This document shows, piece by piece, positions 1,857-26,761 of a DNA stretch of 64,000 nt. Location: NCBI RefSeq assembly GCF_900258515.1, contig NZ_LT984884.1, positions 1,499,168 to 1,563,167 of the forward strand, in the 5' to 3' direction. The translations under genes were made by a program, and so were the position numbers. Position 1 is the stretch's first letter. Each line of letters starts with the position of its first letter. The notes beneath the pieces were generated by a model that worked only from the letters and a program-made list of their open reading frames with translations, ran no database searches and was not told the origin of the DNA. This DNA comes from Lentibacillus sp. Marseille-P4043 (GTDB lineage Bacteria > Bacillota > Bacilli > Bacillales > Amphibacillaceae).

Positions 1857-1870
1857 TGTAAGCGCTTCAT
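1857..1870 (+). promoter_or_regulatory. Candidate cre (CcpA) site
   Basis: TGTAAGCGCTTCAT matches the Bacillus cre consensus TGWAARCGYTWNCW at 13 of 14 positions. It lies 50 bases before the binding-protein gene in the AraC/ABC divergent region and would place the operon under carbon catabolite control. Confidence 0.65.
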
Positions 1871-1896
1871 TAACTATACGATTAAAGTATAGTTAA
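1870..1896. promoter_or_regulatory. Perfect 10-bp inverted repeat, likely operator
   Basis: TTAACTATAC (1870-1879) and its exact complement GTATAGTTAA (1887-1896) are separated by 7 bases, directly after the cre-like site and just before the ribosome site of the binding-protein gene. Position and symmetry suggest an operator or a leader hairpin. AraC proteins more often bind direct repeats, so a different protein may use it. Confidence 0.5.
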
Positions 1897-1919
1897 TTAA
1901 AAATAGGGGGTACTCATTT

Positions 1920-3269
1920 ATGAAGATTAAGAGTCTTTTATTTGTTATATCAATCGTTTTGTTAACATTTGGTTTAGCTGCGTGTTCGGGTGATGGTGAA
2001 TCCGAATCCAAGAAATCGGCTAAAGGAGCAGAAGGGGAAGAAACAACCTTACATGTAGCTGCTTTAGAATCTGCATATGGAGCGGATATGTGGAACAAGA
2101 TCGCTGAATCTTATGAAGCAGTTAATGAAAATGTCAAAATTGATTTGACTTTAAAAAAGAACCTTGAAGAAGTAATCCGTCCGAATATGCAGGCAGGTGA
2201 GTATCCTGATGTTGTTTTACTGGCAACTGGCAGGCCTGAAGCATTGACAGAAACGTTAATTAAGGAAGATGGTTTGGAAAATATTACGGATGTCTTAGGG
2301 ATGGATGTGTCTGGTGAAGACGTAACAGTAGGTGACAAATTGCTGGAAGGATTTACTGATACACTTGCTACCAATCCATACGCTGATGGTGAAACGTACC
2401 TGGCTCCTATGTTTTATAGTCCAACTGGGTTATTCTACAATGCTGGATTATTTGAAGAGAAGGGTTGGGAAGTTCCGGAAACGTGGGATGAGATGTGGGA
2501 ATTGGGCGATAAAGTTGCCGAAGAGGGGATTTCACTCTTTACTTATCCGACAACCGGATACTTTGATACATTAATTGGATCTATGTTGTATGCGTCTGGT
2601 GGTCCCGAATTTTTTAATTCAGCAATGACCTATGAAGATGGTGTCTGGGAATCTGAAGAAGCAACACAGGTGTTTGAAACAGTCGAAAAGTTGGCTGACT
2701 ATACACAACAAAATACGGTTTCTAATGCGAATCCAAATGACTTTACCAAAAACCAGCAATTGATTTTAGACAATAAAGCGCTGTTCATGCCAAATGGTAA
2801 TTGGGTAGTCGATGAAATGAAGGATGCCCCTAGAGCAGATAACTTTGAATGGGGAATGATGCCAATTCCTGCTTTTGAAGATGGTGGAGATCGTTATGCA
2901 TTTACCTTCTTTGAACAAATGTGGATTCCATCTGCAGCTGAAAATAAAGATGCTGCCAAAGCGTTTATTTCCTATATGTATTCAGATGAAGCAGCTTCAA
3001 CATTCCTGGATGCTGGCGCAGTACAGCCAATCAATGGTATGACAGAAAAGTTAGAAGGCCAAAAACAAACCCTCTACAGTATCTATGAAGAAGGAGGAGC
3101 ACTGCCGGCAATGGGTACGTTTGCTTCAACTAAACCTGTACCTGGAGTCAGTATAGGAGATACATTGTACGGGTCTATCGACAGTGTGATGAGCGGTGAT
3201 ATTTCCTATAAAGATTGGCAAGCAAACGTTGAAAAAGCAAGTGACAAATTAAGACCAGCTATGAATTAA
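1920..3269 (+). CDS. Carbohydrate ABC transporter substrate-binding lipoprotein
   Basis: The 449-residue protein has a lipoprotein signal peptide with lipobox LAAC (lipidated Cys22). The rest has the fold signature of family 1 extracellular solute-binding proteins (SBP_bac_1), for example the YNAGLFEEKGWEVPETWDE region common to oligosaccharide binders. It captures an oligosaccharide outside the cell and delivers it to the two permeases that follow. Because the same operon encodes a GH112 phosphorylase, the likely ligand is galacto-N-biose or lacto-N-biose; this is inference from context. No ATPase gene is in the operon, so a shared MsmX-type ATPase is presumably used. A hairpin separates it from the permeases. 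Confidence 0.85.
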   Translation: MKIKSLLFVISIVLLTFGLAACSGDGESESKKSAKGAEGEETTLHVAALESAYGADMWNKIAESYEAVNENVKIDLTLKKNLEEVIRPNMQAGEYPDVVLLATGRPEALTETLIKEDGLENITDVLGMDVSGEDVTVGDKLLEGFTDTLATNPYADGETYLAPMFYSPTGLFYNAGLFEEKGWEVPETWDEMWELGDKVAEEGISLFTYPTTGYFDTLIGSMLYASGGPEFFNSAMTYEDGVWESEEATQVFETVEKLADYTQQNTVSNANPNDFTKNQQLILDNKALFMPNGNWVVDEMKDAPRADNFEWGMMPIPAFEDGGDRYAFTFFEQMWIPSAAENKDAAKAFISYMYSDEAASTFLDAGAVQPINGMTEKLEGQKQTLYSIYEEGGALPAMGTFASTKPVPGVSIGDTLYGSIDSVMSGDISYKDWQANVEKASDKLRPAMN

Positions 3270-3311
3270 GCCACTTCTAGTATTTATCAATAGCGATAGA
3301 GATTAAATAAT

Positions 3312-3341
3312 AAAGCGGTGAGCACATGCCTCACCGTTTTA
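3312..3341 (+). terminator. Intra-operon attenuating stem-loop
   Basis: CGGTGAG (3316-3322) pairs with CTCACCG (3330-3336), loop of 7, followed by TTTTATT. It sits between the binding-protein and first permease genes. This arrangement usually lets the binding protein be made in excess over the membrane subunits. The hairpin covers the alternative GTG at 3318, arguing against that start. Confidence 0.6.
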
Positions 3342-3365
3342 TTCCGTCAAAATGGGGTGAAAATT

Positions 3366-4276: not shown

Positions 4277-5158
4277 ATGGAAAATTCAAAAGGTCTCAGC
4301 ACGGATACACTTGTTAAATTATTTATTTACGTTGCTTTAATTGCACTGGCTATTTCGATTATTGTACCTGTGGCATGGGTATTTATGGCTTCCATCAAGG
4401 AAAACGCTGAATTCTATGAAAGTCCCTGGACATTTCCGAACGGCTTTCATTTTGAAAATTTCATAGAAGCATTTCAAGAAGCAAAAATGGGGGAATACTT
4501 GCTTAATTCTGTAGTTGTTACCGCACTTGCTTTACTAATTTTGCTGATTGTAGCCCTGCCTGCAGCGTATGTTTTATCCAGATTTAAATTTAAGGGAAGT
4601 GCTTTTCTTAATTCCTTTGTGAAAGCAGGTTTGTTTATCAATGTCAGCTACATTGCGGTACCAATTTTCCTCATGTTATTGGATTGGGATACGGTTATAA
4701 AAGGTATATTGGGGGATGGCTTCTTTTTAAACAATCGATTTATGCTTGCCCTTATTTATGCTGCTACAGCACTACCGTTTACGATCTTTCTCTTATCAAG
4801 CTATTTCGAGACTCTGCCATCAGATTTTGAAGAAGCAGCGAGTATTGATGGTGCAGGATATTACCGGACGATGTTCACTGTCATGCTTCCCATGGCGACC
4901 CCGAGTATTGTGATCGTTATTCTGTTTAACTTCCTGTTATTCTGGAATGAATATATTTTGGCCCTTACATTGATGCCTGGGGAAAATCAAACATTGCCGG
5001 TTGGATTGTTAAACTTGATGGCCGCTGAACGTTCTGCAGTAAACTACGGACCATTGTATGCGGGGATGGTAATCGTCATGCTGCCTACATTAATTTTATA
5101 TATTATCGTGCAAAAACGGTTGACGCAAGGTATGACTGTTGGAGGAGTGAAAGGATAG
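4277..5158 (+). CDS. Carbohydrate ABC transporter permease (MalG type)
   Basis: The 293-residue protein has six predicted membrane helices and an EAA motif (FEEAASIDGAGYYRT), as in MalG/UgpE permeases. It forms a heterodimer with the preceding MalF-type subunit. The start ATG follows a very strong purine-rich ribosome site (GGGAGGGGGG). The stop codon lies 9 bases before the chosen ATG of the phosphorylase gene, so transport and cleavage are co-expressed. Confidence 0.87.
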   Translation: MENSKGLSTDTLVKLFIYVALIALAISIIVPVAWVFMASIKENAEFYESPWTFPNGFHFENFIEAFQEAKMGEYLLNSVVVTALALLILLIVALPAAYVLSRFKFKGSAFLNSFVKAGLFINVSYIAVPIFLMLLDWDTVIKGILGDGFFLNNRFMLALIYAATALPFTIFLLSSYFETLPSDFEEAASIDGAGYYRTMFTVMLPMATPSIVIVILFNFLLFWNEYILALTLMPGENQTLPVGLLNLMAAERSAVNYGPLYAGMVIVMLPTLILYIIVQKRLTQGMTVGGVKG

Positions 5159-5167
5159 GTGCAGAAA

Positions 5168-7339
5168 ATGAAGAAGTCAAAAGGGAGAGTTACGCTACCA
5201 AGCCAGCAAAACTTTTTAAAGGAAACAAAAGAACTGATGGAACGCTGGGGAGCTGATGCGCTTCGTGACAGCGATGGAACGAAACTCGATAATGAAATAA
5301 AACAATTGGATGCAAAAATTTATACAACATATTTTGTAGCGCGCAGTCACAATGAATTTGCGAAACAGCATCCAGAAGAAGTACAGCAGCTGTATTTGAT
5401 GTCACAGTATCATACAGCGACAGATACAGAACTGGAAGTAGCATTTATGAATGGTTATTTTTCCGAGCAGATAGAGCCTGATTATATCCATGATCCTAAC
5501 GTATGGTGGGAGGTTATCAACCGGACAACTGGAGAAGTGGTTCATACGGATAATTGGGAAGTCAAGAAAGATGAGAATCGATTACTGATTGGAAATGCGG
5601 TGCCTTGGCATGAATACACCGTTTCTTTCTTAGCCTATATGAAATGGGATCCGACGCAAATGTATAATCATATAACCAATGACTGGGGAGAAAAGCCTCA
5701 TGAGATTCCATTTGATGTCCGCCAACCGCATTCAAATCACTTTATCAGGGATTATTTGAGAAAGTGGTTGAAGGAAAATCCGGACACTGATGTTGTTAGA
5801 TTCACCACCTTTTTTTACCATTTTACATTGGTATTTAACAACTTAGGAAAAGAAAAATTTGTCGATTGGTTTGGGTATGGAGCAAGTTGTTCTGTTGCTG
5901 CATTGGAAGCATTTGAAAAAGAAAATGGTTACCGTTTAAGGCCGGAAGATATAGTCGATCAAGGCTACTACAATACAACATTCCGAGTTCCGACAAAGGC
6001 CTATTTGGATTATATAGACTTCATTCAGCAATTTGTTGCCCGGGAAGTGAAAGACTTGGTGGAAATGGTTCACGAAGGTGGCAAGGAAGCCATGATGTTC
6101 TTGGGAGATAACTGGATTGGAACAGAGCCTTATGGAAAATATTTTGGGGTAACGGGAATCGATGCTGTTGTTGGAAGTGTTGGTGATGGAACAACTTTGC
6201 GAATGATTGCGGATATTCCGAACGTGACGTATACCGAGGGGAGATTCCTACCTTATTTCTTTCCTGATACGTTTTATGAAGGGAACAATCCAGTTATGGA
6301 AGCAAATGAAAACTGGCTATCTGCTAGAAGAGCACTAATGCGTAAGCCCCTAGATCGGATTGGCTATGGTGGATACTTAAGTTTGGCCTATGAATTCCCA
6401 GACTTTGTTCGCTATGTTGAACATATCACGGATGAATTCCGTGATATTTATAGCAAAATTAAGAATGTGAAACCATATGCCGGAATAAAAGTTGCCATTT
6501 TAAATGCATGGGGAAAACTCAGAACGTGGCAATCACATACCGTAGCACATGGTAAATGGTACAAACAAACGTATTCTTATCATGGTGTTTTGGAGGCACT
6601 TAGCGGTTCTGCAGCAGATGTAATTTTTATCAGCTTTGATGATGTGATCGAAAATGGTGTTCCTAAAGATGTGGATGTCATCATTAATACAGGGGATGTA
6701 GGAACTGCCTTTTCTGGAGGAGAAAGATGGCTTGAAGCGGCATTGACCGCAAAAATAAGAGAGTGGATTTACAATGGCGGTGGTTTTATTGGTATTGGGG
6801 AACCTACTGCTTGCCATCATGAAGGCCGTTATTTTCAATTGGCTAATGTATTGGGTGTTGATAAAGAATTAGGATTCAGTTTATCGACAAACAAGTATTT
6901 TGCGGAAGCTGTCGATTCACATTTTATTTCAGAAGATAGCGATGGTTACGATTTTGGCGAAAGCATTAAAAACATCTATGCATTAAATAAAGAAACAGAA
7001 ATTATTGAGTACTCCGACGGGGGGATCCATCTTTCTAGTTCCCCATTTGGGAAAGGCCGCGGCGTATATATCGCTGGTCTTCCTTTTAGTCATATGAATA
7101 CACGGTTGCTGATACGGGCATTGTATTACGCAGCACATAAGGAAGACCAATTTAAAATTTGGCATGCTTCCAATGTACATTGCGAGGTGCATGCATACCC
7201 TGAAATTAAAAAATACGCGGTCGTTAATAATTCAACAGAAAAACAAGTTACGAATGTCTATGATGGTACTGGTAAGAAACGTGTTGTCACATTGGAACCA
7301 AGTGAAATCGTATGGGAGGAATTTTTAGATGAAGGATAA
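5168..7339 (+). CDS. gnpA: 1,3-beta-galactosyl-N-acetylhexosamine phosphorylase (GH112)
   Basis: This cytoplasmic enzyme splits Gal-beta-1,3-GlcNAc/GalNAc with phosphate into galactose-1-phosphate and the N-acetylhexosamine. The 723-residue length and the opening GRVTLPSQQNF and WGADALRDSDGT are typical of lacto-N-biose phosphorylases. FLGDNWIGTEPYG contains Asp314, which should correspond to the catalytic acid (Asp313 in the Bifidobacterium longum enzyme, from memory). A TIM barrel is followed by a glutamine-amidotransferase-like domain (about 440-650) and a small beta domain. ATG 5168 was chosen over GTG 5159 by comparison with the family start and because AGGTG lies 6 bases upstream. GH112 also contains galactosyl-rhamnose phosphorylases, but the nearby GalNAc pathway argues for galacto-N-biose. 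Confidence 0.9.
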   Translation: MKKSKGRVTLPSQQNFLKETKELMERWGADALRDSDGTKLDNEIKQLDAKIYTTYFVARSHNEFAKQHPEEVQQLYLMSQYHTATDTELEVAFMNGYFSEQIEPDYIHDPNVWWEVINRTTGEVVHTDNWEVKKDENRLLIGNAVPWHEYTVSFLAYMKWDPTQMYNHITNDWGEKPHEIPFDVRQPHSNHFIRDYLRKWLKENPDTDVVRFTTFFYHFTLVFNNLGKEKFVDWFGYGASCSVAALEAFEKENGYRLRPEDIVDQGYYNTTFRVPTKAYLDYIDFIQQFVAREVKDLVEMVHEGGKEAMMFLGDNWIGTEPYGKYFGVTGIDAVVGSVGDGTTLRMIADIPNVTYTEGRFLPYFFPDTFYEGNNPVMEANENWLSARRALMRKPLDRIGYGGYLSLAYEFPDFVRYVEHITDEFRDIYSKIKNVKPYAGIKVAILNAWGKLRTWQSHTVAHGKWYKQTYSYHGVLEALSGSAADVIFISFDDVIENGVPKDVDVIINTGDVGTAFSGGERWLEAALTAKIREWIYNGGGFIGIGEPTACHHEGRYFQLANVLGVDKELGFSLSTNKYFAEAVDSHFISEDSDGYDFGESIKNIYALNKETEIIEYSDGGIHLSSSPFGKGRGVYIAGLPFSHMNTRLLIRALYYAAHKEDQFKIWHASNVHCEVHAYPEIKKYAVVNNSTEKQVTNVYDGTGKKRVVTLEPSEIVWEEFLDEG

Positions 7340-7591: not shown

Positions 7592-8503
7592 ATGAGGTAC
7601 GCAATCGGTATCGATATCGGTGGAACGAAAATTGCATCTGGAATCGTGAATGAAAAAGGAAACTTGATTCAAAAGGAAGTAGTAAAAAGCGATCCTTCTG
7701 ACAAAGAGAGCATGTTTTCACGAGTCAAAACATGTGTGAAAGAGCTTTTGAACCATTCCAGCATTCCAGCTGATGAAATTTTTGGCATCGGAGCAGGAAT
7801 TCCAGGCAAAGTTGATCAAAAAAATGGCGTTGCTGTATTTCAAAATAATTTGCCCTGGGGTAATTTTCCATTTGTTAAAAGAATACAGGAAGCGTTAAAA
7901 ATTGACCGAGTTGTCATTGATAATGATGTCTATATGGCAGCCTTTGCAGAGTGGAAGGAGGCGAATTTGAAAACAACAGATTTATTCGTCTACATAACCA
8001 TTAGTACAGGAATTTCCTGTTCCATTATTCAAGGAGGAGAATTTATTTGGGGAGCTGGTTTTGCTGGTGAAATAGGTTTGGTTCCAGTCCATGTACAGAA
8101 CAAAGAAAGACATATGGAGCGGCTTGAATTGACTGCCTCTGGTCCGGCTGTACAGGCACGTGCGAGAGAAATGTATGAAGATGGTACCCTGACAACAAAG
8201 GAAATTTTTTCTGCATTTTACAGTGGAGATTCCAAGGCAAAGCAATTAATTGATGAAATGGCCTCGTCGCTTACGCATGGTGTGTACATGATCAATAGCT
8301 TATTGGATCCGCATAAGATTGTTTTTGGAGGGAGTGTAGCAACACATAATCCTTATTTGCTGACTGTAGTAAAAGAAAAATTAGAACGTTACTTAATCGA
8401 TGAACAAAGGCATATTTTAGATGGAATGGAAATAAGTCAGTTAGGTAATGAGCAGGGGATTATTGGTGCGGGATTGAGAGTGTTTGACGTTGACGCTAGC
8501 TAA
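7592..8503 (+). CDS. ROK-family sugar kinase
   Basis: The 303-residue protein starts with the phosphate-binding motif GIDIGGTK and has the catalytic region IDNDVY (Asp112), so it is a cytoplasmic ATP-dependent sugar kinase of the ROK family. The usual zinc-binding cysteine cluster and its histidine are absent: EIGLVPVH and MERLELTASGPA stand where family members have EIGH and a C-rich loop. By context it may phosphorylate the GlcNAc or GalNAc released by the GH112 enzyme, but glucokinase or ManNAc kinase activity is equally possible. It has its own ribosome site and follows a terminator, so it may be transcribed separately. Confidence 0.8.
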   Translation: MRYAIGIDIGGTKIASGIVNEKGNLIQKEVVKSDPSDKESMFSRVKTCVKELLNHSSIPADEIFGIGAGIPGKVDQKNGVAVFQNNLPWGNFPFVKRIQEALKIDRVVIDNDVYMAAFAEWKEANLKTTDLFVYITISTGISCSIIQGGEFIWGAGFAGEIGLVPVHVQNKERHMERLELTASGPAVQARAREMYEDGTLTTKEIFSAFYSGDSKAKQLIDEMASSLTHGVYMINSLLDPHKIVFGGSVATHNPYLLTVVKEKLERYLIDEQRHILDGMEISQLGNEQGIIGAGLRVFDVDAS

Positions 8504-8767: not shown

Positions 8768-10033
8768 ATGATGCAACCAAAGACAGCCATCGTAATTGGT
8801 GCCGGGGATCGTGGGGCAAGAGCCTACGCTCCTTATGCTTTAGAATATCCGAATGAATTAAAAATTGTGGCTGTAGCTGAGCCAAATAAGGAGAGAAGAA
8901 TCAAATTTAAAGATACACATGGCTTGCCTGCGAAAAACTGTTTTTCTTCTTGGCAAGATATGATGGATCGTGGAAAAATAGCTGACATCGCAATTATATG
9001 TACACTTGATAGATTTCATTTTCAGCCAACGATAAAAGCACTAGAATTAGGTTACCATGTACTACTAGAAAAGCCTATGTCCCCCGATCCTAAAGAATGT
9101 ATTGAGATGGCACGAGTAGCTAAGAAATACAACCGTCAGTTGACGATTTGCCATGTATTACGTTATACAGAATTTTGGTCAACTATAAAAAAAGTAATAT
9201 CTGATGGGAAAATTGGTAAGGTGGCATCTTTACAATTAAATGAAAATGTAGAAGTTATGCATATGTCTCATAGTTTTGTACGAGGAAATTGGAACAATAA
9301 AGAAAAGTCCAGCCCAATGATCTTACAGAAATCTTGTCACGATATGGATATTATCAGTTATATTTTGGATAAAAAATGTGAACGGATTAGTTCGTATGGG
9401 TCGCTAATGCATTTCAAAGAAGAAAATGCTCCAAAAGATGCGCCGGGGCGCTGTCTGGATGGATGTCCTGCTGAACTTGAATGTCCATTTCATGCAGGTA
9501 GATATTACCTTGGTGAAGGGAGAGGATGGGCAAGGAAATTTACTGAGGACACTACTCGCGAGGGGATTATTAAAGCCCTGCATGAAACCCCATACGGAAG
9601 ATGTGTCTATCAATCGGACAATAATGTGGTGGATCACCAGGTTGTAAACATGGAGTTTGAAGATGGTGCAACCGCCATCTTTAGTATGTGTGGTTTTACC
9701 CGCGAACAGACACGTATCGTGCAAATAATGGGTACAAAGGGAGAAATACGTGGCAATATGGAAGAAAACAGTATTTCAATTTACGATTTCCTCACGAAGC
9801 ATGAAACGATCATTAAGTTTGATAATCCTGTAAGCGGACATGGTGGTGGTGATAATGGCATTGTTCGGACCTTTTTACGGGAAATCGATAAAGTAGGTGA
9901 AACGGAAAGTGTTTCTTCTGCTGCTGGTTCATTAAGAAGCCATTTAATGGCCTTTGCGGCAGAGAAATCTAGGTTAAACAGTGGAAGTTCAATTGAATTG
10001 GATGATTATTATAATAGTTTTATAGAAAAGTAA
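8768..10033 (+). CDS. Gfo/Idh/MocA-family oxidoreductase
   Basis: The 421-residue protein has an N-terminal Rossmann fold (IVIGAGDRGARAYAP) and the family motif EKPMSPDP, followed by the alpha/beta C-terminal domain. It probably oxidises or epimerises a sugar with NAD(P). A cysteine-rich insert (CLDGCPAELECPFH, near residue 230) occurs in one clade of the family. NAD-dependent glycosidases such as GH109 alpha-N-acetylgalactosaminidases share this fold, so a glycosidase role cannot be excluded; this is speculation from locus context. Two ATGs in tandem (8768 and 8771) follow AAGGAGAG; the second is equally plausible. An IS begins 5 bases after the stop. Confidence 0.82.
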   Translation: MMQPKTAIVIGAGDRGARAYAPYALEYPNELKIVAVAEPNKERRIKFKDTHGLPAKNCFSSWQDMMDRGKIADIAIICTLDRFHFQPTIKALELGYHVLLEKPMSPDPKECIEMARVAKKYNRQLTICHVLRYTEFWSTIKKVISDGKIGKVASLQLNENVEVMHMSHSFVRGNWNNKEKSSPMILQKSCHDMDIISYILDKKCERISSYGSLMHFKEENAPKDAPGRCLDGCPAELECPFHAGRYYLGEGRGWARKFTEDTTREGIIKALHETPYGRCVYQSDNNVVDHQVVNMEFEDGATAIFSMCGFTREQTRIVQIMGTKGEIRGNMEENSISIYDFLTKHETIIKFDNPVSGHGGGDNGIVRTFLREIDKVGETESVSSAAGSLRSHLMAFAAEKSRLNSGSSIELDDYYNSFIEK

Positions 10034-11598: not shown

Positions 11599-11650
11599 GA
11601 TAATAGATAATAAAATATCCATCAGTATTCAAAATAATGGTGAAATAAAA

Positions 11651-11687
11651 TACTACCCAAATACAAGAACTTTACATTTGGGTAGTA
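11651..11687. terminator. 12-bp perfect stem-loop
   Basis: TACTACCCAAAT (11651-11662) pairs with ATTTGGGTAGTA (11676-11687) across a 13-base loop. There is no T tract on either strand; it may be a degraded terminator or mobile-element end. Confidence 0.45.
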
Positions 11688-11732
11688 CCTTCAGTAAGAA
11701 AAAGGGTGACTTTATGGTAACAATTTCTTAAG

Positions 11733-11775
11733 AGTGTCAGATCTTGAGTGGTCCGGCGCTTTTTTTATTTGGTAT
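11733..11775. repeat. Dispersed repeat, copy 1 (AGTGTCAGATCTT family)
   Basis: AGTGTCAGATCTT at 11733-11745 is followed by a diverged stretch ending in CTTTTT and TATTTGGTAT. The same order of blocks recurs at 18591-18630 in the same orientation, on the other side of the GH31 gene. Confidence 0.5.
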
Positions 11776-11938
11776 TTGAAAGGCTTGTTCCACTTTCCCC
11801 TAAAAACTGTATTACGTGTAGGGAAAGGAGATTTTGTTCTAATTTGTTCTGATAGGTGCCCAAATAGATGGAGCAATTGTCAAGTATTTATAATCATATA
11901 GGTATTAGTAGTAAAATAGTAGTGACTAATTTTGAACA

Positions 11939-11945
11939 AAAATAC
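11939..11945. repeat. Target-site duplication, left copy
   Basis: AAAATAC directly before the left terminal repeat is repeated directly after the right one (15213-15219). Confidence 0.75.
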
Positions 11946-11958
11946 TGTAAAGCATCAC
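11946..11958 (+). repeat. Left terminal inverted repeat of transposon
   Basis: TGTAAAGCATCAC, exact inverted match to 15200-15212; similarity continues imperfectly inward (TTAT then CCC). Confidence 0.85.
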
Positions 11959-18731: not shown

Positions 18732-18781
18732 TTTACATTTTTATAAATATGTTTTATACTAAAATTAACTGGTTATAACCA
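18732..18781 (+). promoter_or_regulatory. Promoter and autoregulatory operator of the GntR gene
   Basis: TTTACA (18732-18737), 17 bases, TATACT (18755-18760) form a good sigma-A promoter. TGGTTATAACCA (18770-18781) lies just past the expected start of transcription, so bound repressor would block it. The geometry equals that of the GH31 promoter. Confidence 0.75.
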
Positions 18782-18817: not shown

Positions 18818-19534
18818 TTGGATAAGAAAAGTAAAGTACCACTATATTTACAACTAATGGAAGAGATAATTAAAAAAATCGAAGCTCAGGATTATGCTGA
18901 GCATGAAAAACTACCTTCTGAGCGTGAATTGTGCGAAATATATGATTTAAGCCGAATTACGGTGAGACAGACATTGCAGGAATTAGAACGGGAAGGATAC
19001 ATCTTTAAACTGCATGGGAAAGGTACATTTGTTGCTTCAAAGTCGTACAATCAAAATTTGGTGAAGCTATATAGTTTTACTGAGGAAATGAAGCAAATGG
19101 GTAAGGAACCGACGACCCAAGTACTTTCTTTCCAAGAGATTGTGGTGGATGCGCGATTGGCGAACAAGATGGGTCTTTACCCTTTGGATGAAGTTTTCCA
19201 AGTTGTCCGGTTGCGTCTTGCAGATGGTGAGCCGTTGATGTATGAAACATCCTATTTGCCGAAGAAAACGTTCCCGAATTTAACGGAAGCTGATTTTAGA
19301 AAGCGACCAATGTATGATATTTTTTATGACGATTATCAAGTTGGTGTGACAAAAGCAGTGGAGCGCTTTTCTGCAACAAGCGCTCGTGAGAAGGAAGCAG
19401 AACAATTGTGTATCCTAACAGATCAACCCGCGATGCTAATCAAACGATTTGCTTATCATAATGATGAATTAATCGAATATACTATTAGTGTAGCCCGTGG
19501 AGATAAATTTGATTATACGGTTGAATTGACGTAA
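18818..19534 (+). CDS. agaR: GntR-family (HutC/UTRA) repressor of the GalNAc cluster
   Basis: The 238-residue protein has an N-terminal winged helix-turn-helix (LPSERELCEIYDLSRITVRQ) and a C-terminal UTRA effector domain (about 90-235), as in NagR/YvoA, DasR and firmicute AgaR. It likely binds the TGGTTATAACCA palindromes before its own gene and before the GH31 gene and is released by an amino-sugar phosphate. The TTG start is preceded by GGGAGG at a rather long spacing (14 bases); no better start is present. The gene symbol is by analogy. Confidence 0.82.
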   Translation: MDKKSKVPLYLQLMEEIIKKIEAQDYAEHEKLPSERELCEIYDLSRITVRQTLQELEREGYIFKLHGKGTFVASKSYNQNLVKLYSFTEEMKQMGKEPTTQVLSFQEIVVDARLANKMGLYPLDEVFQVVRLRLADGEPLMYETSYLPKKTFPNLTEADFRKRPMYDIFYDDYQVGVTKAVERFSATSAREKEAEQLCILTDQPAMLIKRFAYHNDELIEYTISVARGDKFDYTVELT

Positions 19535-19653: not shown

Positions 19654-20829
19654 ATGTTTAATCTAACAGCTGAAGAGCTAGAAATGAAGAAAGCAGTGCA
19701 TACCGCAAGTGAAATTCACCAGCAGCCAGAAGTGTGGCAGGAACTCGTTTCGATGATTTTTCGACAAAGAGAATCGTTAAAAGGATTTATTGAATCGATT
19801 TATCAAAAGCATGAAAACATAAGAGTGATTATGACTGGAGCAGGGACTTCAGCATTTATTGGTGACATACTTGTTCCGGAATTACGGAAACAAACGAAAG
19901 GAAAAGTGCAGTTTGAAGCGATTCCGACAACAGATATTGTTTCCAATCCGAATGAATACCTTCTCAAAGATATTCCAACGATCATGGTGTCATTTGCAAG
20001 ATCAGGGAATAGCCCGGAGAGTGTGGCGGCTGTTTCACTAGGAGAACAGGTTATTGATCATTTTTATCAGGTTGTTATTACATGTAATAAGGACGGCAAG
20101 CTTGCGAAAAACATAAAAAGTGATGATAATGCTATCACGATTTTGACACCAGATAAAGCGCATGATCAGGGATTTGCGATGACAAGTAGTTTTACGTGTA
20201 TGATCATTGCAGCATACGCACTGTTTACGTCTAATGCCTTTACTGGTAATAGGACTAAACAAATCATTGCGAGTGGCGAACGATTAATCGAATCGATAGC
20301 GGAGAGCATCGATGATATTTTGGCATTTGACTTTAATAGGGTTGTTTATCTGGGATCAGGGTTGCTCGGACAATTATCCCACGAAGCTGCACTGAAAATG
20401 CTTGAATTATCAGCAGGTAAAGTTGTATCTATTCATGAATCATCACTAGGCTTCCGACATGGTCCGAAATCAATTTTGAATGAAAAGTCATTAGTCGTTT
20501 TATTCATGTCCCAAGATGCCTATACGAGAAAATATGACATGGATATTTTACGAGAATTGGCAGCAGACGATTCCGAAATGAAGGTGATTGCACTTACAGA
20601 GAAAAAAGATCAAGAGGTGGATGAACTTGCTGATTGGACGATTCCAGTAAACTATGGTCAGGATTTATTCGCTAGTGATTTTCATCTCGCATTATTATAT
20701 ATTATTTTTGCTCAAACATTAGCATTGAAAAAATCAATACAATTGGGCATTACACCGGATAACCCTAGTCCAGATGGGCGTGTAAACCGGGTTGTTCAGG
20801 GTGTAACGATTTATGGGTATGATAAATAA
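19654..20829 (+). CDS. agaS: Galactosamine-6-phosphate deaminase/isomerase (SIS family)
   Basis: The 391-residue protein has two SIS domains (GTSAF near 56 and GSGLLG near 232) and the active-site segment HESSLGFRHGPKS. AgaS converts D-galactosamine-6-phosphate into tagatose-6-phosphate and ammonia in the cytoplasm. This is the step after deacetylation of GalNAc-6-phosphate. The start ATG follows TGGAGGATGACGA. It lies between its regulator and the PTS genes, and the kinase and aldolase for its product are in the same cluster. Confidence 0.9.
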   Translation: MFNLTAEELEMKKAVHTASEIHQQPEVWQELVSMIFRQRESLKGFIESIYQKHENIRVIMTGAGTSAFIGDILVPELRKQTKGKVQFEAIPTTDIVSNPNEYLLKDIPTIMVSFARSGNSPESVAAVSLGEQVIDHFYQVVITCNKDGKLAKNIKSDDNAITILTPDKAHDQGFAMTSSFTCMIIAAYALFTSNAFTGNRTKQIIASGERLIESIAESIDDILAFDFNRVVYLGSGLLGQLSHEAALKMLELSAGKVVSIHESSLGFRHGPKSILNEKSLVVLFMSQDAYTRKYDMDILRELAADDSEMKVIALTEKKDQEVDELADWTIPVNYGQDLFASDFHLALLYIIFAQTLALKKSIQLGITPDNPSPDGRVNRVVQGVTIYGYDK

Positions 20830-20903: not shown

Positions 20904-20935
20904 AATGAAAATCTAAAAACAAAGGAATGGTAGAT

Positions 20936-21418
20936 ATGGAAACAGGTCCAAATATATTACTAACAAGAATTGATAATCGTTTGATCCATGGTCAAGTGGG
21001 TGTTACATGGGTGAATCATTTAGGCGCTAATTTAGTTGTTGTTGCGAATGACAAAGTATCGGAAGACGAGGTACAGCAAAATTTAATGGATATGGTTTTA
21101 CCAGACGTGATACAGGCTCGTTATTTTTCATTGCAAAAAACAGTGGATATTATTCATAAAGCATCACCACGTCAGAAAATATTTTTAGTAGTGAAAGATG
21201 TGCATGATGCATTGAAATTAAAAGAGGGGGGAGTCCCGATTGATCATTTGAACATTGGAAACATGCATTACGAGGAAGGTAAGAAACAGATTTCATCTAC
21301 TGTATCTGTTGATGACAAAGATGTTGAAGCATTTAAACGGTTAGATGAACTGGGTGTGGAACTTGATTTGCGAAGGGTACCGAATGAAAAGGGACAAAAT
21401 ATTTTAGATCTGCTCTAA
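20936..21418 (+). CDS. agaV: PTS mannose-family IIB component
   Basis: The 160-residue protein carries the phosphorylated histidine in RLIHGQV (His18) and is typical of EIIB of the mannose/sorbose/GalNAc family. It accepts phosphate from IIA and passes it to the incoming sugar. ATG 20936 is preferred over 20927 because AAAGGA then has a spacing of 9. Together with the IIC, IID and IIA genes it forms a complete transporter that would deliver GalNAc-6-phosphate or galactosamine-6-phosphate. The symbol follows E. coli usage and is an analogy. Confidence 0.88.
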   Translation: METGPNILLTRIDNRLIHGQVGVTWVNHLGANLVVVANDKVSEDEVQQNLMDMVLPDVIQARYFSLQKTVDIIHKASPRQKIFLVVKDVHDALKLKEGGVPIDHLNIGNMHYEEGKKQISSTVSVDDKDVEAFKRLDELGVELDLRRVPNEKGQNILDLL

Positions 21419-21498: not shown

Positions 21499-22272
21499 AT
21501 GTTGTTTGAGGCTATATTAATTGCTCTCTGGGCTGGTATTATTGGGATTGATCTCTATGTTGGTCTGACACATATTCACCGGCCAGTAGTTACAGGGCTT
21601 GTAGTTGGACTGATTTTGGGCGACGTTACAACGGGTTTAATTGTAGGAGGAACATTGGAATTAATTTGGATGGGAATGGTACCGCTTGCAGGTGCACAAC
21701 CGCCTAATGTCGTTATTGGTGGAGTCATTGGTACTGCTTTTGGTATTATTGCCGGTCAGGATCCGAATGTTGCAGTTGGTGTGGCAATACCATTCGCTGT
21801 AGCAGTACAAGGTTTGATTACGTTATTCTTCACAGCTTTCGCACCAGTGATGCATAAAGCGGATACGTTTGCACTGGATGCCAATTATAAGGGGATTGAC
21901 AAGATAAACTATCTGGGGATAACAATCTTATTTGTCTTTAATGCTTTAATTGCCTTTTTACCGATTTATCTTGGTGCAGAAGAAGCAGCAGCATTTGTGA
22001 AAACGGTACCACAGTGGATTATTGATGGACTCTCAATTGCTGGAGGCATCATGCCAGCAATCGGCTTTGCGATGTTGTTGAAGATTATGATGAAGGTCGA
22101 ATATGTGATGTTCTTTATTGTCGGCTTTGTTCTGGCAGCATATCTGGGAATGCCAATCCTAGCAATTGCACTGATTGGTCTAGCGATTGCATTGTATGAT
22201 TTTTACCAAAACAAGAATAAGCAAGGTCCTGCGAATGCACCTCGAGAGGAGGAAATAACTGATGGCATCTAA
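21499..22272 (+). CDS. agaW: PTS mannose-family IIC component
   Basis: The 257-residue membrane protein has the PTS-EIIC_sorbose pattern, with GGTLELIWMGMVPLAGAQPP as the family's conserved loop. It forms the translocation channel with IID. Its end overlaps the IID start by 11 bases, which indicates translational coupling. Confidence 0.9.
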   Translation: MLFEAILIALWAGIIGIDLYVGLTHIHRPVVTGLVVGLILGDVTTGLIVGGTLELIWMGMVPLAGAQPPNVVIGGVIGTAFGIIAGQDPNVAVGVAIPFAVAVQGLITLFFTAFAPVMHKADTFALDANYKGIDKINYLGITILFVFNALIAFLPIYLGAEEAAAFVKTVPQWIIDGLSIAGGIMPAIGFAMLLKIMMKVEYVMFFIVGFVLAAYLGMPILAIALIGLAIALYDFYQNKNKQGPANAPREEEITDGI

Positions 22273-23077
22273 TGTATACGAAGATCAAACACCAGCTGAA
22301 GACTTACAGCCGAAACAGTTACGTCATTTGGTGTGGCGATCATTACTGTTGCAAGCATCTTTTAACTATGAGCGGATGCAGGCTTGTGGATGGCTTTATT
22401 CCATTTTGCCTGGGTTACGGCATATTCATAAAAATAAAAAAGACTTAAGTAAATCGATGAAAGATCATATGGAGTTTTTTAATACGCATCCATTTCTCGT
22501 TACGTTTATCATGGGTGTTATTCTCGCAATGGAACAGAAGAAAGAGGATCGAGAAGCCATTCGTGGGATTAAAGTAGCTACAATGGGCCCGCTTGGTGGT
22601 ATTGGGGATGCGATGTTTTATTTAACCTTGCTGCCGATTACGGCCGGGATTGGTGCCTCACTTGCCGTAGATGGAAATGTCCTTGGTCCGTTTGTGTTTT
22701 TGATTGCATTTAACGTCATCCACTTTGGAGCTCGTTTTGGATTAATGAGCTATGGTTATAAAACAGGTGTAAAAGCCATCGCAAAATTGAAAGAAGGGAC
22801 AAAGCATGTATCTCGTGCTGCCTCCATTGTTGGTTTGACAGTAGTTGGAGGATTAATTGCAACATATGTAGCGTTTAACGTAACTTACGTTTGGAAGTCT
22901 GGCGAAGCAGAATTGAATGTACAGGAAGATGTATTAGATCAAATAATGCCAGCAATGCTTCCACTGGCCTATACATTATTGATGTATTGGTTATTAAAAA
23001 AAGGCCGTTCCCCATTAATGTTAATCGGGCTTACTGTAGTTGTTGGATTGATTGGCTCTTACTTTAACATTTTGTAA
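22262..23077 (+). CDS. agaE: PTS mannose-family IID component
   Basis: The 271-residue membrane protein has the EIID motifs QASFNYERMQACGW and GPLGGIGDAMFY and C-terminal helices. It is the obligate partner of IIC, specific to mannose-family PTS. Its ribosome site GAGGAGG lies in the end of the IIC gene. Confidence 0.9.
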   Translation: MASNVYEDQTPAEDLQPKQLRHLVWRSLLLQASFNYERMQACGWLYSILPGLRHIHKNKKDLSKSMKDHMEFFNTHPFLVTFIMGVILAMEQKKEDREAIRGIKVATMGPLGGIGDAMFYLTLLPITAGIGASLAVDGNVLGPFVFLIAFNVIHFGARFGLMSYGYKTGVKAIAKLKEGTKHVSRAASIVGLTVVGGLIATYVAFNVTYVWKSGEAELNVQEDVLDQIMPAMLPLAYTLLMYWLLKKGRSPLMLIGLTVVVGLIGSYFNIL

Positions 23078-23157: not shown

Positions 23158-23574
23158 ATGATTGGAATTGTACTAACAGGACATGGATCATTTCCAAATG
23201 GGATACTGCAGTCAGTGCAGTTAATTACAGGGGAAGTAAAGCAAGTGGAAGTTATTCCCTTTGAAGAAGATCAGGCAAAACTTCAAACAGAACTGGAGAA
23301 GGCTATAGATAAAGTTAACACAGGTTCTGGGGTCGTTTGTTTTGCCGATTTAGCAGGTGGGACACCGTTTAATGTGTGTTCACGACTGGCGGCAACGAAG
23401 GAAAGTGTTCGTGTTATTGGCGGAACAAATTCACCTATGTTATTAAGTGGACTATTTCAACGGGAACTTAGTGTAGATGAATTTGTTGAGAAAGCTTTAA
23501 TGGAAGGAAAAGAAAATATCAAGCAATTTGGAATCAAGCAAAAGCAGGCAGTAGACGATGCAGATGGAATTTAA
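23158..23574 (+). CDS. agaF: PTS mannose-family IIA component
   Basis: The 138-residue protein begins VLTGHGSFPNG with the phosphorylation site His9 and contains FADLAGGTPFN, both standard for EIIA of the mannose family. It takes phosphate from HPr. Here IIA is a separate protein encoded after IID, as in aga clusters. A GAAAGGGTAG ribosome site precedes it. Confidence 0.9.
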   Translation: MIGIVLTGHGSFPNGILQSVQLITGEVKQVEVIPFEEDQAKLQTELEKAIDKVNTGSGVVCFADLAGGTPFNVCSRLAATKESVRVIGGTNSPMLLSGLFQRELSVDEFVEKALMEGKENIKQFGIKQKQAVDDADGI

Positions 23575-23601: not shown

Positions 23602-24753
23602 ATGACATTTTACATCAAAGCAGATCGTTATTTACTAGAAAGTCAAGAAGTATTTAATCAATATATAGAGGTTGTTGATGGGCGTTTTGGTTCGTTTGCT
23701 GACACGGTTCCACCTAATGCCGAAGTTGTGGATTGGACCGGTTATACAATAGCCCCGGGTTTGTTTGATACACATATTCACGGAATCAATGGTTATGACA
23801 TTATGGATGGAACCAAAGACGCAGCCAAAAAAATTTCGGAAGCAATTCTTCCATTAGGTGTGACACGATATTTGCCGACGACACTGACATCAAGTAAAGC
23901 AGACTTAGACAAGGCTATTGCGACTGTAGCAGAAGCTGTTAGGGAAGGTCTGCCAGGTGCACAGTCGGAAGGGATCTTTTTAGAAGGGCCGTATTTCACG
24001 GAAAAACATAAAGGAGCGCAAAACCCGCAATATTTCTGTGATCCTGATCTTAGGGAATTCCAACATTGGCAAGAACTTTCGGGTGGTACCATTGTGAAAA
24101 TTGCATTGGCACCTGAACGTGATGGAGCGTTGGAGTTTATTCGTCGGGTTAGTGAGGAAGACGTGTTAGTGAGCCTTGCGCATACGGATGCGAGCTATGA
24201 TTGTTGTTGTGCTGCCGTGGACGTCGGGGCACGAGACTTTGTGCATTTATTTAATGGCATGTCAGGATTACATCATCGTGATCCTGGTGTAGCGGGTGCT
24301 GCACTTACAAATTCCAGAGCATTTGCTGAGTTGATTTGTGATGGGTATCATGTGCACCCGGATATAGCAGTATTAGCATCACGTGTGAAGGATGATAAGC
24401 TCGTTTTGATTACGGATTGCATGCGTGCGGGGTTGATGCCAGACGGACATTATCATCTTGGTGAATTTCCGGTTGTGATGCAGCAGGATGGAGTTGCACG
24501 GACAGAAGCAGGTTCGTTAGCTGGAAGCACGTTAAAGCTTATTGACGGGGTGGCTAACTTGCATAGATGGAGCGATAAGCCATTATATGAAATCTGGCAT
24601 CGGGCCTCCCTCTCTCCGGCTAAAAGTCTAGGGCGTGAAACGGAAATGGGCAGCATAGCTCGTGGGAAACTAGCAGACTATGTTGTGTTAGATGATGAAT
24701 TAGTTGTCCAAGCTACGGCTGTTGCAGGTGAGATGAAGTATCGGAAAGTGTAG
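23602..24753 (+). CDS. nagA: N-acetylgalactosamine/glucosamine-6-phosphate deacetylase
   Basis: The 383-residue amidohydrolase has DTHIHG, FLEGPYFTEKHKGAQNP, LAHTDA, HLFNGM and the catalytic Asp in LITDCMRAG. It removes acetate from HexNAc-6-phosphate in the cytoplasm. Its place before the tagatose pathway genes suggests GalNAc-6-phosphate as natural substrate (AgaA role); sequence alone does not distinguish this from NagA. The next gene starts 6 bases after its stop. Confidence 0.88.
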   Translation: MTFYIKADRYLLESQEVFNQYIEVVDGRFGSFADTVPPNAEVVDWTGYTIAPGLFDTHIHGINGYDIMDGTKDAAKKISEAILPLGVTRYLPTTLTSSKADLDKAIATVAEAVREGLPGAQSEGIFLEGPYFTEKHKGAQNPQYFCDPDLREFQHWQELSGGTIVKIALAPERDGALEFIRRVSEEDVLVSLAHTDASYDCCCAAVDVGARDFVHLFNGMSGLHHRDPGVAGAALTNSRAFAELICDGYHVHPDIAVLASRVKDDKLVLITDCMRAGLMPDGHYHLGEFPVVMQQDGVARTEAGSLAGSTLKLIDGVANLHRWSDKPLYEIWHRASLSPAKSLGRETEMGSIARGKLADYVVLDDELVVQATAVAGEMKYRKV

Positions 24754-24759
24754 GTGATC

Positions 24760-25704
24760 ATGGTGATTTTAACAGTGACATTGAACCCCGCAGTTGATGT
24801 GAGCTATAAGCTTGATCAGTTCGCGCTTGATAGCGTTAATCGGATACGTGATGTTTCCAAGACTGCTGGTGGTAAGGGTCTAAATGTGTCTCGGGTACTG
24901 AAGCTACTCGGAGAAGATATCGCTGCAACAGGGTTTTTAGGTGGCAGTTTAGGTAACTTTATCCAATCACAATTAGTCCATCTTGGTATTCACGACTTTT
25001 TTGTACCGATTCAAGGCGAATCACGGAACTGTATTGCGGTGATCCATGAAGGACGACAGACAGAAATCCTGGAAAGTGGTCCGGTTATTAAGGCGAGTGA
25101 GACCAATGACTTTCTTGGAAAATTTACAGAATATGTTCGGAAGGTAGATTTGGTTACGATATCAGGAAGCTTACCAAAAGGCTTAACGAATGACTTTTAT
25201 GAAAAATTAATTGATACAGCTGGAAACAACGATACCTCTGTTTTGTTAGATACCAAAGGGGAACTCTTAGAACACACATTAAAAGGCATTAGTAAGCCAT
25301 ACTTAATAAAGCCAAATCAGGAGGAATTGGCTGATTTACTGAAGAGGAAATTGACCAATGAAGCGGACATTATCGATGCCATGAAATCTGCTATGTTTGC
25401 TGATGTGGAATGGGTAGTGGTAACACTTGGTTCAGAAGGTGCGCTTGTGAAACATAATGAGGTAATGTATCGTGCAAAGCCACCAAAAGTTGAAGCAGTA
25501 AATCCAGTGGGGTCAGGTGATTCTGTAATAGCCGGTTTTGCTGCTGGATTGTCACGCGGGTTCATAAACGAGGAATTGATTAAATTTGGACTGGCTATGG
25601 GTGTGTTAAATGCGATGGAGGAAAAAACAGGTCATATTAATCCAGAAAAAATAGATTGGTGTATGGAAAATATCCAAGTAGAAGAAATAGCAATTGGGGG
25701 ATAA
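24760..25704 (+). CDS. lacC: Tagatose-6-phosphate kinase (PfkB family)
   Basis: The protein has 314 residues with the PfkB signatures GGKGLNVSR and NPVGSGDSVIAG; the Asp of the latter is catalytic. It phosphorylates tagatose-6-phosphate to the 1,6-bisphosphate, though 1-phosphofructokinases look alike. ATG 24760 was chosen over GTG 24754 since AGGTGATC lies directly before it. Its 3' end overlaps the region that supplies the ribosome site of the aldolase gene. Confidence 0.85.
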   Translation: MVILTVTLNPAVDVSYKLDQFALDSVNRIRDVSKTAGGKGLNVSRVLKLLGEDIAATGFLGGSLGNFIQSQLVHLGIHDFFVPIQGESRNCIAVIHEGRQTEILESGPVIKASETNDFLGKFTEYVRKVDLVTISGSLPKGLTNDFYEKLIDTAGNNDTSVLLDTKGELLEHTLKGISKPYLIKPNQEELADLLKRKLTNEADIIDAMKSAMFADVEWVVVTLGSEGALVKHNEVMYRAKPPKVEAVNPVGSGDSVIAGFAAGLSRGFINEELIKFGLAMGVLNAMEEKTGHINPEKIDWCMENIQVEEIAIGG

Positions 25705-25708
25705 ATCA

Positions 25709-26698
25709 ATGAAACTATCACCAGGTAAACAACGAGGATTAGAATTAATTTCAAATGAAAATAACGTTATTTTAGCGACCGCAATGGATCAGCGGGGATC
25801 GTTAGGGAAAATGATCAAATCGTTTAATGACACGATTTCCTATGAAGAGGGATTAAGCCAATTTAAAGTGGGTGTCAGTGAGGTGCTTGGCAATCAATCA
25901 TCTTCATTACTTCTTGATCCCGAATATGGCTGGGATGCAGCAGGGAAATTAACAAAGGGAATCGGCTTAATTATGGCATATGAAAAAACGGGCTATGATG
26001 CTACGGAAAAAGGCCGTTTACCTAATCTAGTTGATAATTATGCAGTTCAGGATCTAGCAAAGGCTGGGGCAAGTGCTGTTAAATTGCTAGTGTATTATGA
26101 TCATAAGGAAGAAGAGGAAATCAACAAAATAAAAAAAGCACTTATCAAACGTGTCGGTGATGAATGTAAGCAAAATGATATTCTTTTCATTTTAGAGCCT
26201 GTTTCATATAGCGCTGAAGGTCTAGATTCGAAAGGGACTGAATTTGCAAAAAGAAAACCGGAAATTGTGGAATATTTTATGGAAGAGTTCTCAAAAGCAA
26301 TGTATAGCATTGATGTATTGAAAGTTGAAGTACCTGTGTCTATTTTCCATATTGAAGGCTATGATCAATACGAAAATTATGATCCCGTTTTCAGCCGGGA
26401 AGAAGCAGCAGGATTGTATCGTACCTGCTCCGAAAAAAGCCGCTTGCCATTTATTTATTTAAGTGGTGGTGTGACAAACGAGCAATTCATTGAAACATTG
26501 CATTTTGCCAAGAGGGCAGGTGCTAGGTTCAGTGGAAGTCTTTGTGGAAGAGCTATTTGGAAGGAAGGTGTGAAGCCTTTCGCGGAAGGAAACGAGGATG
26601 CCTATTACCAATGGCTTGAAACAACAGGATCTGCCAATCTGAAAAACGTGATGGGTGCAATCAAAGAAACGGCGACACCTTGGGATGAAGTTATATAA
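25709..26698 (+). CDS. lacD: Tagatose-1,6-bisphosphate aldolase, class I
   Basis: The 329-residue protein has the LacD pattern AMDQRGSLGKM and the Schiff-base lysine in VLKVEVPV. It cleaves tagatose-1,6-bisphosphate to dihydroxyacetone phosphate and glyceraldehyde-3-phosphate, the last step of the pathway. ATG 25709 fits GGGGGA at spacing 7; an in-frame TTG at 25694 is unlikely. A terminator closes the cluster. Confidence 0.9.
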   Translation: MKLSPGKQRGLELISNENNVILATAMDQRGSLGKMIKSFNDTISYEEGLSQFKVGVSEVLGNQSSSLLLDPEYGWDAAGKLTKGIGLIMAYEKTGYDATEKGRLPNLVDNYAVQDLAKAGASAVKLLVYYDHKEEEEINKIKKALIKRVGDECKQNDILFILEPVSYSAEGLDSKGTEFAKRKPEIVEYFMEEFSKAMYSIDVLKVEVPVSIFHIEGYDQYENYDPVFSREEAAGLYRTCSEKSRLPFIYLSGGVTNEQFIETLHFAKRAGARFSGSLCGRAIWKEGVKPFAEGNEDAYYQWLETTGSANLKNVMGAIKETATPWDEVI

Positions 26699-26731
26699 TA
26701 AATATGAATTTCAAATTAAACTAGATTGTAC

Positions 26732-26761
26732 AAAAGCTTCGGTTAATACCGGGGCTTTTTG
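26732..26761 (+). terminator. Terminator of the aga cluster
   Basis: AAAAGCTTCGG (26732-26742) pairs with CCGGGGCTTTT (26749-26759, two G-U pairs) over a 6-base loop and runs into T residues. Confidence 0.8.

What the first reader, a model, noticed from the sequence alone, without database searches (positions are those of the whole stretch)
1857..26761. Interrupted mucin-glycan island joining GH112 phosphorolysis to a full GalNAc PTS/tagatose pathway
The sequence shows a GH112 operon, a secreted GH31 enzyme of the GalNAc-specific type and a complete aga pathway (PTS IIBCDA, deacetylase, AgaS, LacC, LacD). Removing the two mobile elements puts the GH31 gene about 350 bp from the Gfo/Idh gene. 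The inferred job is to use core-1 (Gal-beta-1,3-GalNAc) and Tn glycans, importing disaccharide by ABC and free GalNAc by PTS. Such a set would be unusual in a marine-type Bacillaceae.
Basis: partly seen in the sequence, partly recalled or inferred. Interest (0 to 1): 0.7.

Follow-up and report, generated by a model that had tools for sequence, protein, structure and literature searches.

The report
Mucin-core sugar pathway in Bacillaceae
A bacterium from a group with many salt-loving members carries, split by two jumping genes, a gene set that probably imports and burns the innermost sugars of animal mucus, with an unusual sugar kinase that may join its two halves into one pathway.

Summary
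In detail: AraC | SBP-permease-permease-GH112-ROK, Gfo/Idh, IS1182, a 3.27-kb transposon, secreted GH31, then GntR-AgaS-PTS IIBCDA-deacetylase-LacC-LacD. The GH31 groups with GH31_18 alpha-GalNAcases. The galacto-N-biose reading of GH112 rests on context: of 159 genomes in the same family, 26 have GH112 and all 26 also have AgaS and the ROK kinase; 16 of 19 GH101 genomes have GH112. So the set is not unusual in this family. New here: (1) the ROK kinase, of a clade without the usual zinc cysteines and ExGH histidine, is the likely GalNAc 6-kinase that feeds phosphorolysis-released GalNAc into the AgaS/tagatose route; 7 of 26 GH112 genomes lack an AgaW PTS subunit over cut-off but keep ROK. (2) GH31 and GntR share an exact operator, ACTGGTTATAACCA, also found before aga genes of relatives. 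(3) A relative shows the transposon's empty site upstream of GH31. (4) This genome has no GH101 or GH20 match, so it probably scavenges galacto-N-biose freed by others. A new variant of known mucin core-1/GalNAc pathways; nothing was assayed.

The parts
906..1793 (-). AraC-family regulator, divergent from the GNB operon
   Evidence: same place in relatives
1920..3269 (+). ABC sugar-binding lipoprotein (TIGR03850)
   Evidence: 665.8 bits; best PDB 9h0n 451 bits
3318..4256 (+). ABC permease 1
4277..5158 (+). ABC permease 2
5159..7339 (+). GH112 phosphorylase, probable galacto-N-biose phosphorylase
   Evidence: (PDB 3wfz 864 bits)
7592..8503 (+). ROK sugar kinase, predicted GalNAc 6-kinase; no zinc cysteines, ExGL in place of ExGH
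8768..10033 (+). Gfo/Idh/MocA-type oxidoreductase, full length, role unknown
10039..11598 (-). IS1182-family element (transposase ORF 10117-11595); ends set by me from the inverted repeats
   Evidence: 285.3 bits, cut-off 270; inverted repeats I3; no clear target duplication
11605..11945 (.). original DNA upstream of GH31, left of the transposon
   Evidence: its last bases run on into the GH31 side in a relative
11946..15212 (-). transposon: AAA ATPase, IS481/Mu-type rve transposase, DUF6431; TIR TGTAAAGCATCAC, target duplication AAAATAC
15260..15271 (+). operator TGGTTATAACCA before GH31
15389..18403 (+). secreted GH31 (GH31_18-type alpha-GalNAcase) with NEW3 and F5/8C domains
   Evidence: signal peptide by reading the sequence
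18770..18781 (+). operator TGGTTATAACCA before GntR
18818..19534 (+). GntR/UTRA regulator (AgaR-type, predicted)
19654..20829 (+). AgaS-family galactosamine-6-phosphate deaminase/isomerase
20927..21418 (+). GalNAc PTS IIB
21499..22272 (+). GalNAc PTS IIC (AgaW)
22262..23077 (+). GalNAc PTS IID
23158..23574 (+). PTS IIA
23602..24753 (+). N-acetylhexosamine-6-phosphate deacetylase (AgaA by context)
24754..25704 (+). tagatose-6-phosphate kinase (LacC-like)
25694..26698 (+). tagatose-1,6-bisphosphate aldolase (LacD-type)

Best explanation
One pathway for the core of animal O-glycans. [quoted passage not shown] GH112 splits it with phosphate into Gal-1-phosphate and free GalNAc; the ROK kinase phosphorylates that GalNAc at O6; Gal-1-phosphate goes to GalT/GalE. 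Outside, the secreted GH31 removes single alpha-GalNAc (Tn) and the PTS imports it as GalNAc-6-phosphate. Both arms meet at GalNAc-6-phosphate, which the deacetylase, AgaS, LacC and LacD take to triose phosphates. GntR controls the aga operon and GH31 through ACTGGTTATAACCA; AraC probably controls the disaccharide operon. Two mobile elements split the cluster without cutting a gene; GH31 keeps a promoter-like stretch and the operator. Shown: gene content, family membership, conservation, co-occurrence, shared operator sequence, empty site. Inferred: every enzyme activity, the kinase's substrate and position, protein binding to the operator, the ligands of the regulators, and that the source is mucin or similar O-glycoprotein.
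For: GH112, AgaS and ROK co-occur: 26 of 26 GH112 genomes have AgaS (15 of the 133 others do; Fisher p 1.3e-19, not corrected for relatedness) and all 26 have a ROK match at E<=1e-50. ROK lies beside GH112 in 25 of 26; in the 26th (G143) the contig ends there. In G010 and G154 GH112-ROK runs straight into GntR-AgaS-IIBCDA. G042 has SBP-permeases-GH112-ROK-AgaS-deacetylase-LacC-LacD and no AgaW match at E<=1e-40 in a 95% complete genome. GalE and GalT sit beside the set in G107, G156 and G293; own GalT at C1:1825721-1827166, 667.7 bits. GH101 precedes the operon in G293 and G480, of two other families. All 9 GH31 genomes have GH112. Operator: 11 of 29 regions upstream of GntR, AgaS or GH31 (<=1 mismatch) against at most 2 of 29 for any other of 4096 palindromes.
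Against: Nothing was assayed. The genome has no GH101 at E<=1e-3 and no GH20, so its galacto-N-biose must come from outside. In the 26 named loci with GH31 relatives (up to 10 kb of flank) none shows GH112 or aga genes, so GH31 is not tied to the set outside this family. TIGR02336 does not separate specificities: a GH112 in a uronate-type cluster (G444: GH88, KDPG aldolase, PfkB kinase) also scores 1001.6. Over all 41 AgaS genomes ROK and AgaW are not anticorrelated (p 0.38), only in the 15 without GH112; several AgaW-negative genomes hold weaker IIC relatives, so another PTS could take GalNAc. 8 of 10 GH31 upstream regions lack the operator, and the window's own AgaS region has no copy at <=2 mismatches. 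A characterised GH31_18 (Hoskinsella) cleaved pNP-alpha-GalNAc but none of the native substrates tried (PMC13096917, passages).
Confidence: 0.7

Rival explanations
1. [quoted passage not shown]
For: The only solved GH112 is the B. longum enzyme that takes both disaccharides (activity table in PMC8950772, passages); the best PDB relatives of ROK are glucokinases and ManNAc kinases, 98.6 bits at most; a Roseburia binding protein linked to GH112 prefers lacto-N-biose and also takes galacto-N-biose (PMC7335108, passages), though its kinship with this SBP was not tested.
Against: 26 of 26 GH112 genomes have AgaS; ROK lies 1.8-3.1 kb from AgaS in 6 of the 9 GH112-free AgaS genomes that have a ROK (12, 68 and 72 kb in the other three); no GH20 in the window genome. 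Lacto-N-biosidases of other families (GH136) were not searched.
Confidence: 0.2
2. Two unrelated systems happen to lie side by side: a disaccharide ABC-GH112-ROK operon and an independent GalNAc PTS operon with GH31.
For: In 12 of 26 GH112 genomes AgaS is more than 20 kb from GH112 or on another contig (coordinates); the two operons have different neighbouring regulators (AraC and GntR).
Against: AgaS is within 20 kb in 14 of 26; ROK-GntR-AgaS in G010 and G154 and ROK-AgaS in G042 and G480 are direct neighbours.
Confidence: 0.12
3. The substrate is not host mucin but another alpha-GalNAc or core-1-like glycan, such as bacterial surface glycans or glycolipids; GH31 acts on that.
For: The native substrate of one characterised GH31_18 is unsettled; GH123 genes lie beside GH31 relatives.
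Against: GH101, GH20, GH84 and sulfatase genes lie near the set in some relatives; BT3169-GH31 released GalNAc from desialylated bovine submaxillary mucin, though not from Tn antigen or blood group A (PMC11992087, passages).
Confidence: 0.15

Closest known systems
[quoted passage not shown]
   Same: ABC import and GH112 phosphorolysis to Gal-1-phosphate and HexNAc
   Different: There an APH-type N-acetylhexosamine kinase acting at O1 follows (PMC11992087, passages); here a ROK kinase and the deacetylase/AgaS/tagatose route, with GalT about 320 kb away
Aga (GalNAc) PTS pathway of E. coli and others
   Same: PTS IIBCDA, deacetylase, AgaS, tagatose-6-phosphate kinase and aldolase
   Different: LacC and LacD-type enzymes here; linked to GH112, ROK and a secreted GH31; a GntR regulator (E. 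coli AgaR as a DeoR-type regulator is recalled)
Shewanella AgaP/AgaK
   Same: A kinase in place of the PTS step (PMC2996990 and PMC12118421, passages)
   Different: Permease system without a phosphorylase; whether AgaK is homologous to this ROK clade was not tested
Lactobacillus casei gnb cluster
   Same: Brings galacto-N-biose and GalNAc into the GalNAc pathway (PMC5583593, passages)
   Different: PTS import of the disaccharide and a hydrolase GnbG instead of ABC and phosphorylase
Bacteroides thetaiotaomicron PUL BT4240-50 with BT3169-GH31
   Same: Links alpha-GalNAc release from mucin to a GalNAc kinase (PMC11992087, passages)
   Different: Kinase is APH type, assigned to O1; no GH112 is described in the passages seen

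Membership tests
GH112 (1,3-beta-galactosyl-N-acetylhexosamine phosphorylase) | Three GH112 domains and TIGR02336 over cut-off | tested here: met
GH112 (1,3-beta-galactosyl-N-acetylhexosamine phosphorylase) | Galacto-N-biose preference of the enzyme | not testable with these tools
   Context only. WDPT in 23 of 30 aligned sequences, WDPV in 7; a role of this position in acceptor choice is a recollection, not tested
GH31 subfamily 18 alpha-GalNAcase | Closest to characterised GH31_18 enzymes | tested here: met
   Profile of 8 sequences: 6m76 780 bits, next protein 325; GH31_18 gathers all GalNAc-active members (PMC13096917, passage). That 6m76 is counted in subfamily 18 is recalled
GH31 subfamily 18 alpha-GalNAcase | Catalytic-Asp motifs LDVAWVG and WTGDQTG | tested here: met
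   Shared with 6m76 as KTDVAWVG and WTGDQTG; in the 8-sequence alignment D356, V357-G361, W404, G406-Q408 and G410 are invariant, L355, T405 and T409 vary; the roles of the two Asp are recalled
GH31 subfamily 18 alpha-GalNAcase | Hydrolysis of alpha-GalNAc | not testable with these tools
   no assay
ROK sugar kinase | Pfam ROK domain and DND catalytic motif | tested here: met
ROK sugar kinase | Canonical zinc cysteines and ExGH histidine | tested here: not met
   absent in 28 of 28 aligned sequences; the printed PDB alignments show ExGH in three glucokinases and HxGH in a ManNAc kinase, with the cysteines in the three that cover them
Aga GalNAc pathway | agaS with agaA and AgaPTS in one cluster (criteria of PMC5583593, passages) | tested here: met
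   AgaS at 471 bits is below the curated 529.2
B. longum type GNB pathway | NahK (APH-type 1-kinase) in the cluster | tested here: not met
   none among the ORFs annotated between 906 and 26698; the rest of the genome was not searched
L. casei gnb | GnbG hydrolase clustered with the PTS | tested here: not met
   none among the ORFs annotated

The most novel reading that the evidence does not exclude
A new functional class of ROK kinase: a zinc-less, ExGL-type GalNAc 6-kinase that replaces the PTS step and wires phosphorolytic galacto-N-biose use into the tagatose-6-phosphate route, within a GntR regulon (operator ACTGGTTATAACCA) for host O-glycans that is spread through this Bacillaceae family and some related families.
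Probability: 0.6. Interest if true: 0.55.

Novelty: new variant of a known kind. Interest (0 to 1): 0.45.

Why it matters
It would place a complete route for the core of animal O-glycans in a family of Bacillaceae with many salt-tolerant members, name a kinase for a step that other organisms do with a PTS or a 1-kinase, and give a short operator by which the regulon can be sought in other genomes. It also separates probable primary degraders (with GH101) from a probable cross-feeder such as this strain.

Tried and rejected
Considered and rejected: (1) That the locus is unique to this genome. (2) That the window's GH31 is an alpha-glucosidase: the genome's other GH31 match lies about 16 kb upstream of the window (ORF) and matches the Pfam barrel far better (435 against 107 bits); the window one sits with the GalNAcase. 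(3) Gfo/Idh as an NAD-dependent glycosidase: the AlphaFold model (pLDDT 77) matches many Gfo/Idh folds alike, with NAD-dependent sulfoquinovosidases and RgNanOx on top by a narrow margin; inconclusive. Close relatives (74-85% in the 120 listed) occur in many Bacillaceae; among the fetched GH112 neighbourhoods copies at 67% or more are in G052, G060, G154 and G157, so it may or may not belong to this pathway. (4) A catabolite-repression (cre) scan: 7 matches against 4.9 expected, 24 of 100 shuffles reach 7. (5) Promoter scan: 46 found against 58.5 expected, so the promoter box named is only suggestive. (6) Synteny with the two genus mates G057 and G058: the right flank lies scattered, so gain or loss of the locus could not be decided; neither mate has GH112 or AgaS. 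(7) Rfam: no match at gathering score.

Literature: no held paper has both 'galacto-n-biose phosphorylase' and 'tagatose', 'n-acetylgalactosamine kinase' and 'rok', or 'mucin', 'bacillaceae', 'gh101' and 'glycoside hydrolase'; 'virgibacillus' with 'mucin' gave 50 papers, of which I saw 12 titles and abstract starts, none on this. The library holds open-licence papers only. All papers cited were seen as passages.
Full report
What is there. Left to right: AraC regulator on the minus strand (906-1793); binding protein, two permeases and GH112 (1920-7339); a ROK kinase (7592-8503); Gfo/Idh (8768-10033); an IS1182 element; a transposon; GH31 (15389-18403); GntR (18818-19534); AgaS; PTS IIB, IIC, IID, IIA; deacetylase; LacC; LacD (to 26698). 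AgaS, IID, IIA and LacC score below their curated cut-offs though they match those families strongly; IIB, IIC (AgaW), the deacetylase and GH112 are over theirs. No ABC ATPase is among the ORFs annotated; such transporters often share one encoded elsewhere (recalled).

Mobile elements. The transposon has terminal repeats at 11946-11966 and 15192-15212 and the same 7 bases, AAAATAC, on both sides. A relative with an 80%-identical GH31 (G143, L080) has the uninterrupted sequence with one copy of these bases: this is the empty site. The transposon ends just before a promoter-like pair at 15223-15250 (the scan as a whole is below its shuffles) and the operator at 15260, so GH31 keeps them. The IS1182 element has inverted repeats but no clear target duplication. 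Subtracting both leaves about 0.53 kb between Gfo and GH31, not 350 bp. Gfo/Idh is as long as its relatives (418-451 residues in the 120 listed), so it was not cut.

Comparison in the family. Of 159 genomes in the family (46 genera), 26 have GH112 (15 genera), 41 have AgaS at E<=1e-60, none of them over the curated cut-off, and 9 have this GH31 at E<=1e-60. For GH101 the search tallied 29 genomes at E<=1e-3; I count the 19 with E<=1e-60 and drop 10 weak ones, one of which touched the cut-off. All 26 GH112 genomes have AgaS and a ROK match at E<=1e-50; all 9 GH31 genomes have GH112; 16 of 19 GH101 genomes have GH112 (Fisher p 1.3e-19 for AgaS, 2.2e-8 for GH31, 1.1e-12 for GH101, none corrected for relatedness). 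The window genome is the only one of the 9 GH31 genomes without GH101, and it has no GH20. From the coordinates, AgaS lies within 20 kb of GH112 in 14 of 26 genomes and GH101 in 11 of 16. In an order-wide draw of 397 genomes 5 have GH112, the window's included. Of the other four, G293 and G480 have GH101 next to the same operon; G180 has the operon with ROK and no GH101 was looked for beyond the ORF list of its 19.5 kb; G444 is a different, uronate-type context. Named GH112 relatives among the 120 listed include Virgibacillus, Lentibacillus, Halobacillus, Aquibacillus, Gracilibacillus, Neobacillus and Bacillus. Against a tight link of GH31 to the set: in 26 named loci with GH31 relatives none has GH112 or aga genes in the flanks held, among them the two at 63% identity, Scopulibacillus and Rossellomorea.

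The kinase. Phosphorolysis leaves unphosphorylated GalNAc in the cell, which a PTS does not charge. ROK is the one kinase of that operon. It lies beside GH112 in 25 of 26 genomes; 7 of 26 GH112 genomes have no AgaW over its cut-off but all have ROK. Among the 15 AgaS genomes without GH112, 8 have ROK and no AgaW, 5 AgaW and no ROK, 1 both, 1 neither (Fisher p 0.011; 8 genera, so fewer independent cases); over all 41 there is no such contrast (p 0.38). AgaW here means over the curated cut-off; weaker IIC relatives are present in several of the rest. The aligned clade (28 sequences) keeps the DND motif but has Leu, Phe or Met where the aligned PDB glucokinases and ManNAc kinase have the histidine, and lacks zinc cysteines. 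Kinase-for-PTS replacement in GalNAc use is known from Shewanella AgaK (PMC2996990, PMC12118421, passages).

GH31. The profile of 8 relatives hits the E. faecalis GH31 alpha-GalNAcase at 780 bits, the next protein at 325. [quoted passage not shown] BT3169-GH31 freed GalNAc from desialylated submaxillary mucin but not from Tn antigen or blood group A (PMC11992087, passages).

Regulation. The palindrome TGGTTATAACCA stands exactly before GH31 (15260) and before GntR (18770); these are the only 2 matches at <=1 mismatch in the window, 0.25 expected, and 3 of 100 shuffles reach 2. In the window plus 42 loci (876 kb) there are 15 matches at <=1 mismatch, about 1.9 expected for uniform base composition: 14 lie within 300 bases upstream of GntR, AgaS, AraC/SBP or GH31, the window's two included, and the 15th lies about 200 bases upstream of a GH123 gene of G156. 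Against all 4096 palindromic 12-mers, on 29 upstream regions from 24 sequences that I chose among those held, it ranks first with 11 regions, others at most 2; two of the 29 are the window regions in which I first saw the motif. 8 of 10 GH31 regions lack it, as does the window's AgaS region. That GntR is the protein that binds it is inferred from its place.

Leloir side. GalE and GalT neighbour the set in G156, G107 and G293; the window genome has GalT elsewhere. GalE was not searched in it. G107 and G010 have a GatY-type tagatose-bisphosphate aldolase in the cluster.

Ecology is inference. Virgibacillus and Lentibacillus are reported in salted fermented fish entrails (PMC12692573, passages), a setting with fish mucus; where the window strain comes from is unknown.

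Verdict.

Noticed in passing
window 27970-28058 and 31229-31329: An about 89-base palindromic repeat (TGGGACA...TGTCCC) that matches many further sites of the genome, mostly at contig positions 1.41-1.76 Mb; looks like a REP-type dispersed repeat.
   Followed up: no
window 31457-31963: Small ORF with 21-base (7-residue) tandem repeats, no Pfam match at E<=1e-5.
   Followed up: no
window 28875-30071: LXG-domain protein (PF04740, 176 bits), a domain known from exported polymorphic toxins of Gram-positives (recalled).
   Followed up: no
window 50689-58191: Seven and a half kb with 28.9% G+C against 37.4% for the window, a run of six ORFs of 381-485 residues.
   Followed up: no
L033 and L034 (upstream of the window): Sugar-type genes upstream: a second GH31, two Gfo/Idh genes, ABC transporter genes, and ORFs that read like a sugar kinase and an isomerase.
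   Followed up: partly
L088, L072/L073, L078: Sulfatase and FGE-type maturase genes near the GH112/ROK set in G052 and G060, and a sulfatase in G037, as for sulfated mucin glycans.
   Followed up: partly
L125 (G444): A GH112 in a cluster with GH88, KDPG aldolase and a PfkB kinase, perhaps of another specificity; it still scores 1001.6 against TIGR02336.
   Followed up: partly
L074:16317-18407 and L001:8125-9951: GH123 genes beside GH31 relatives; the G156 one has the exact operator about 200 bases upstream.
   Followed up: partly
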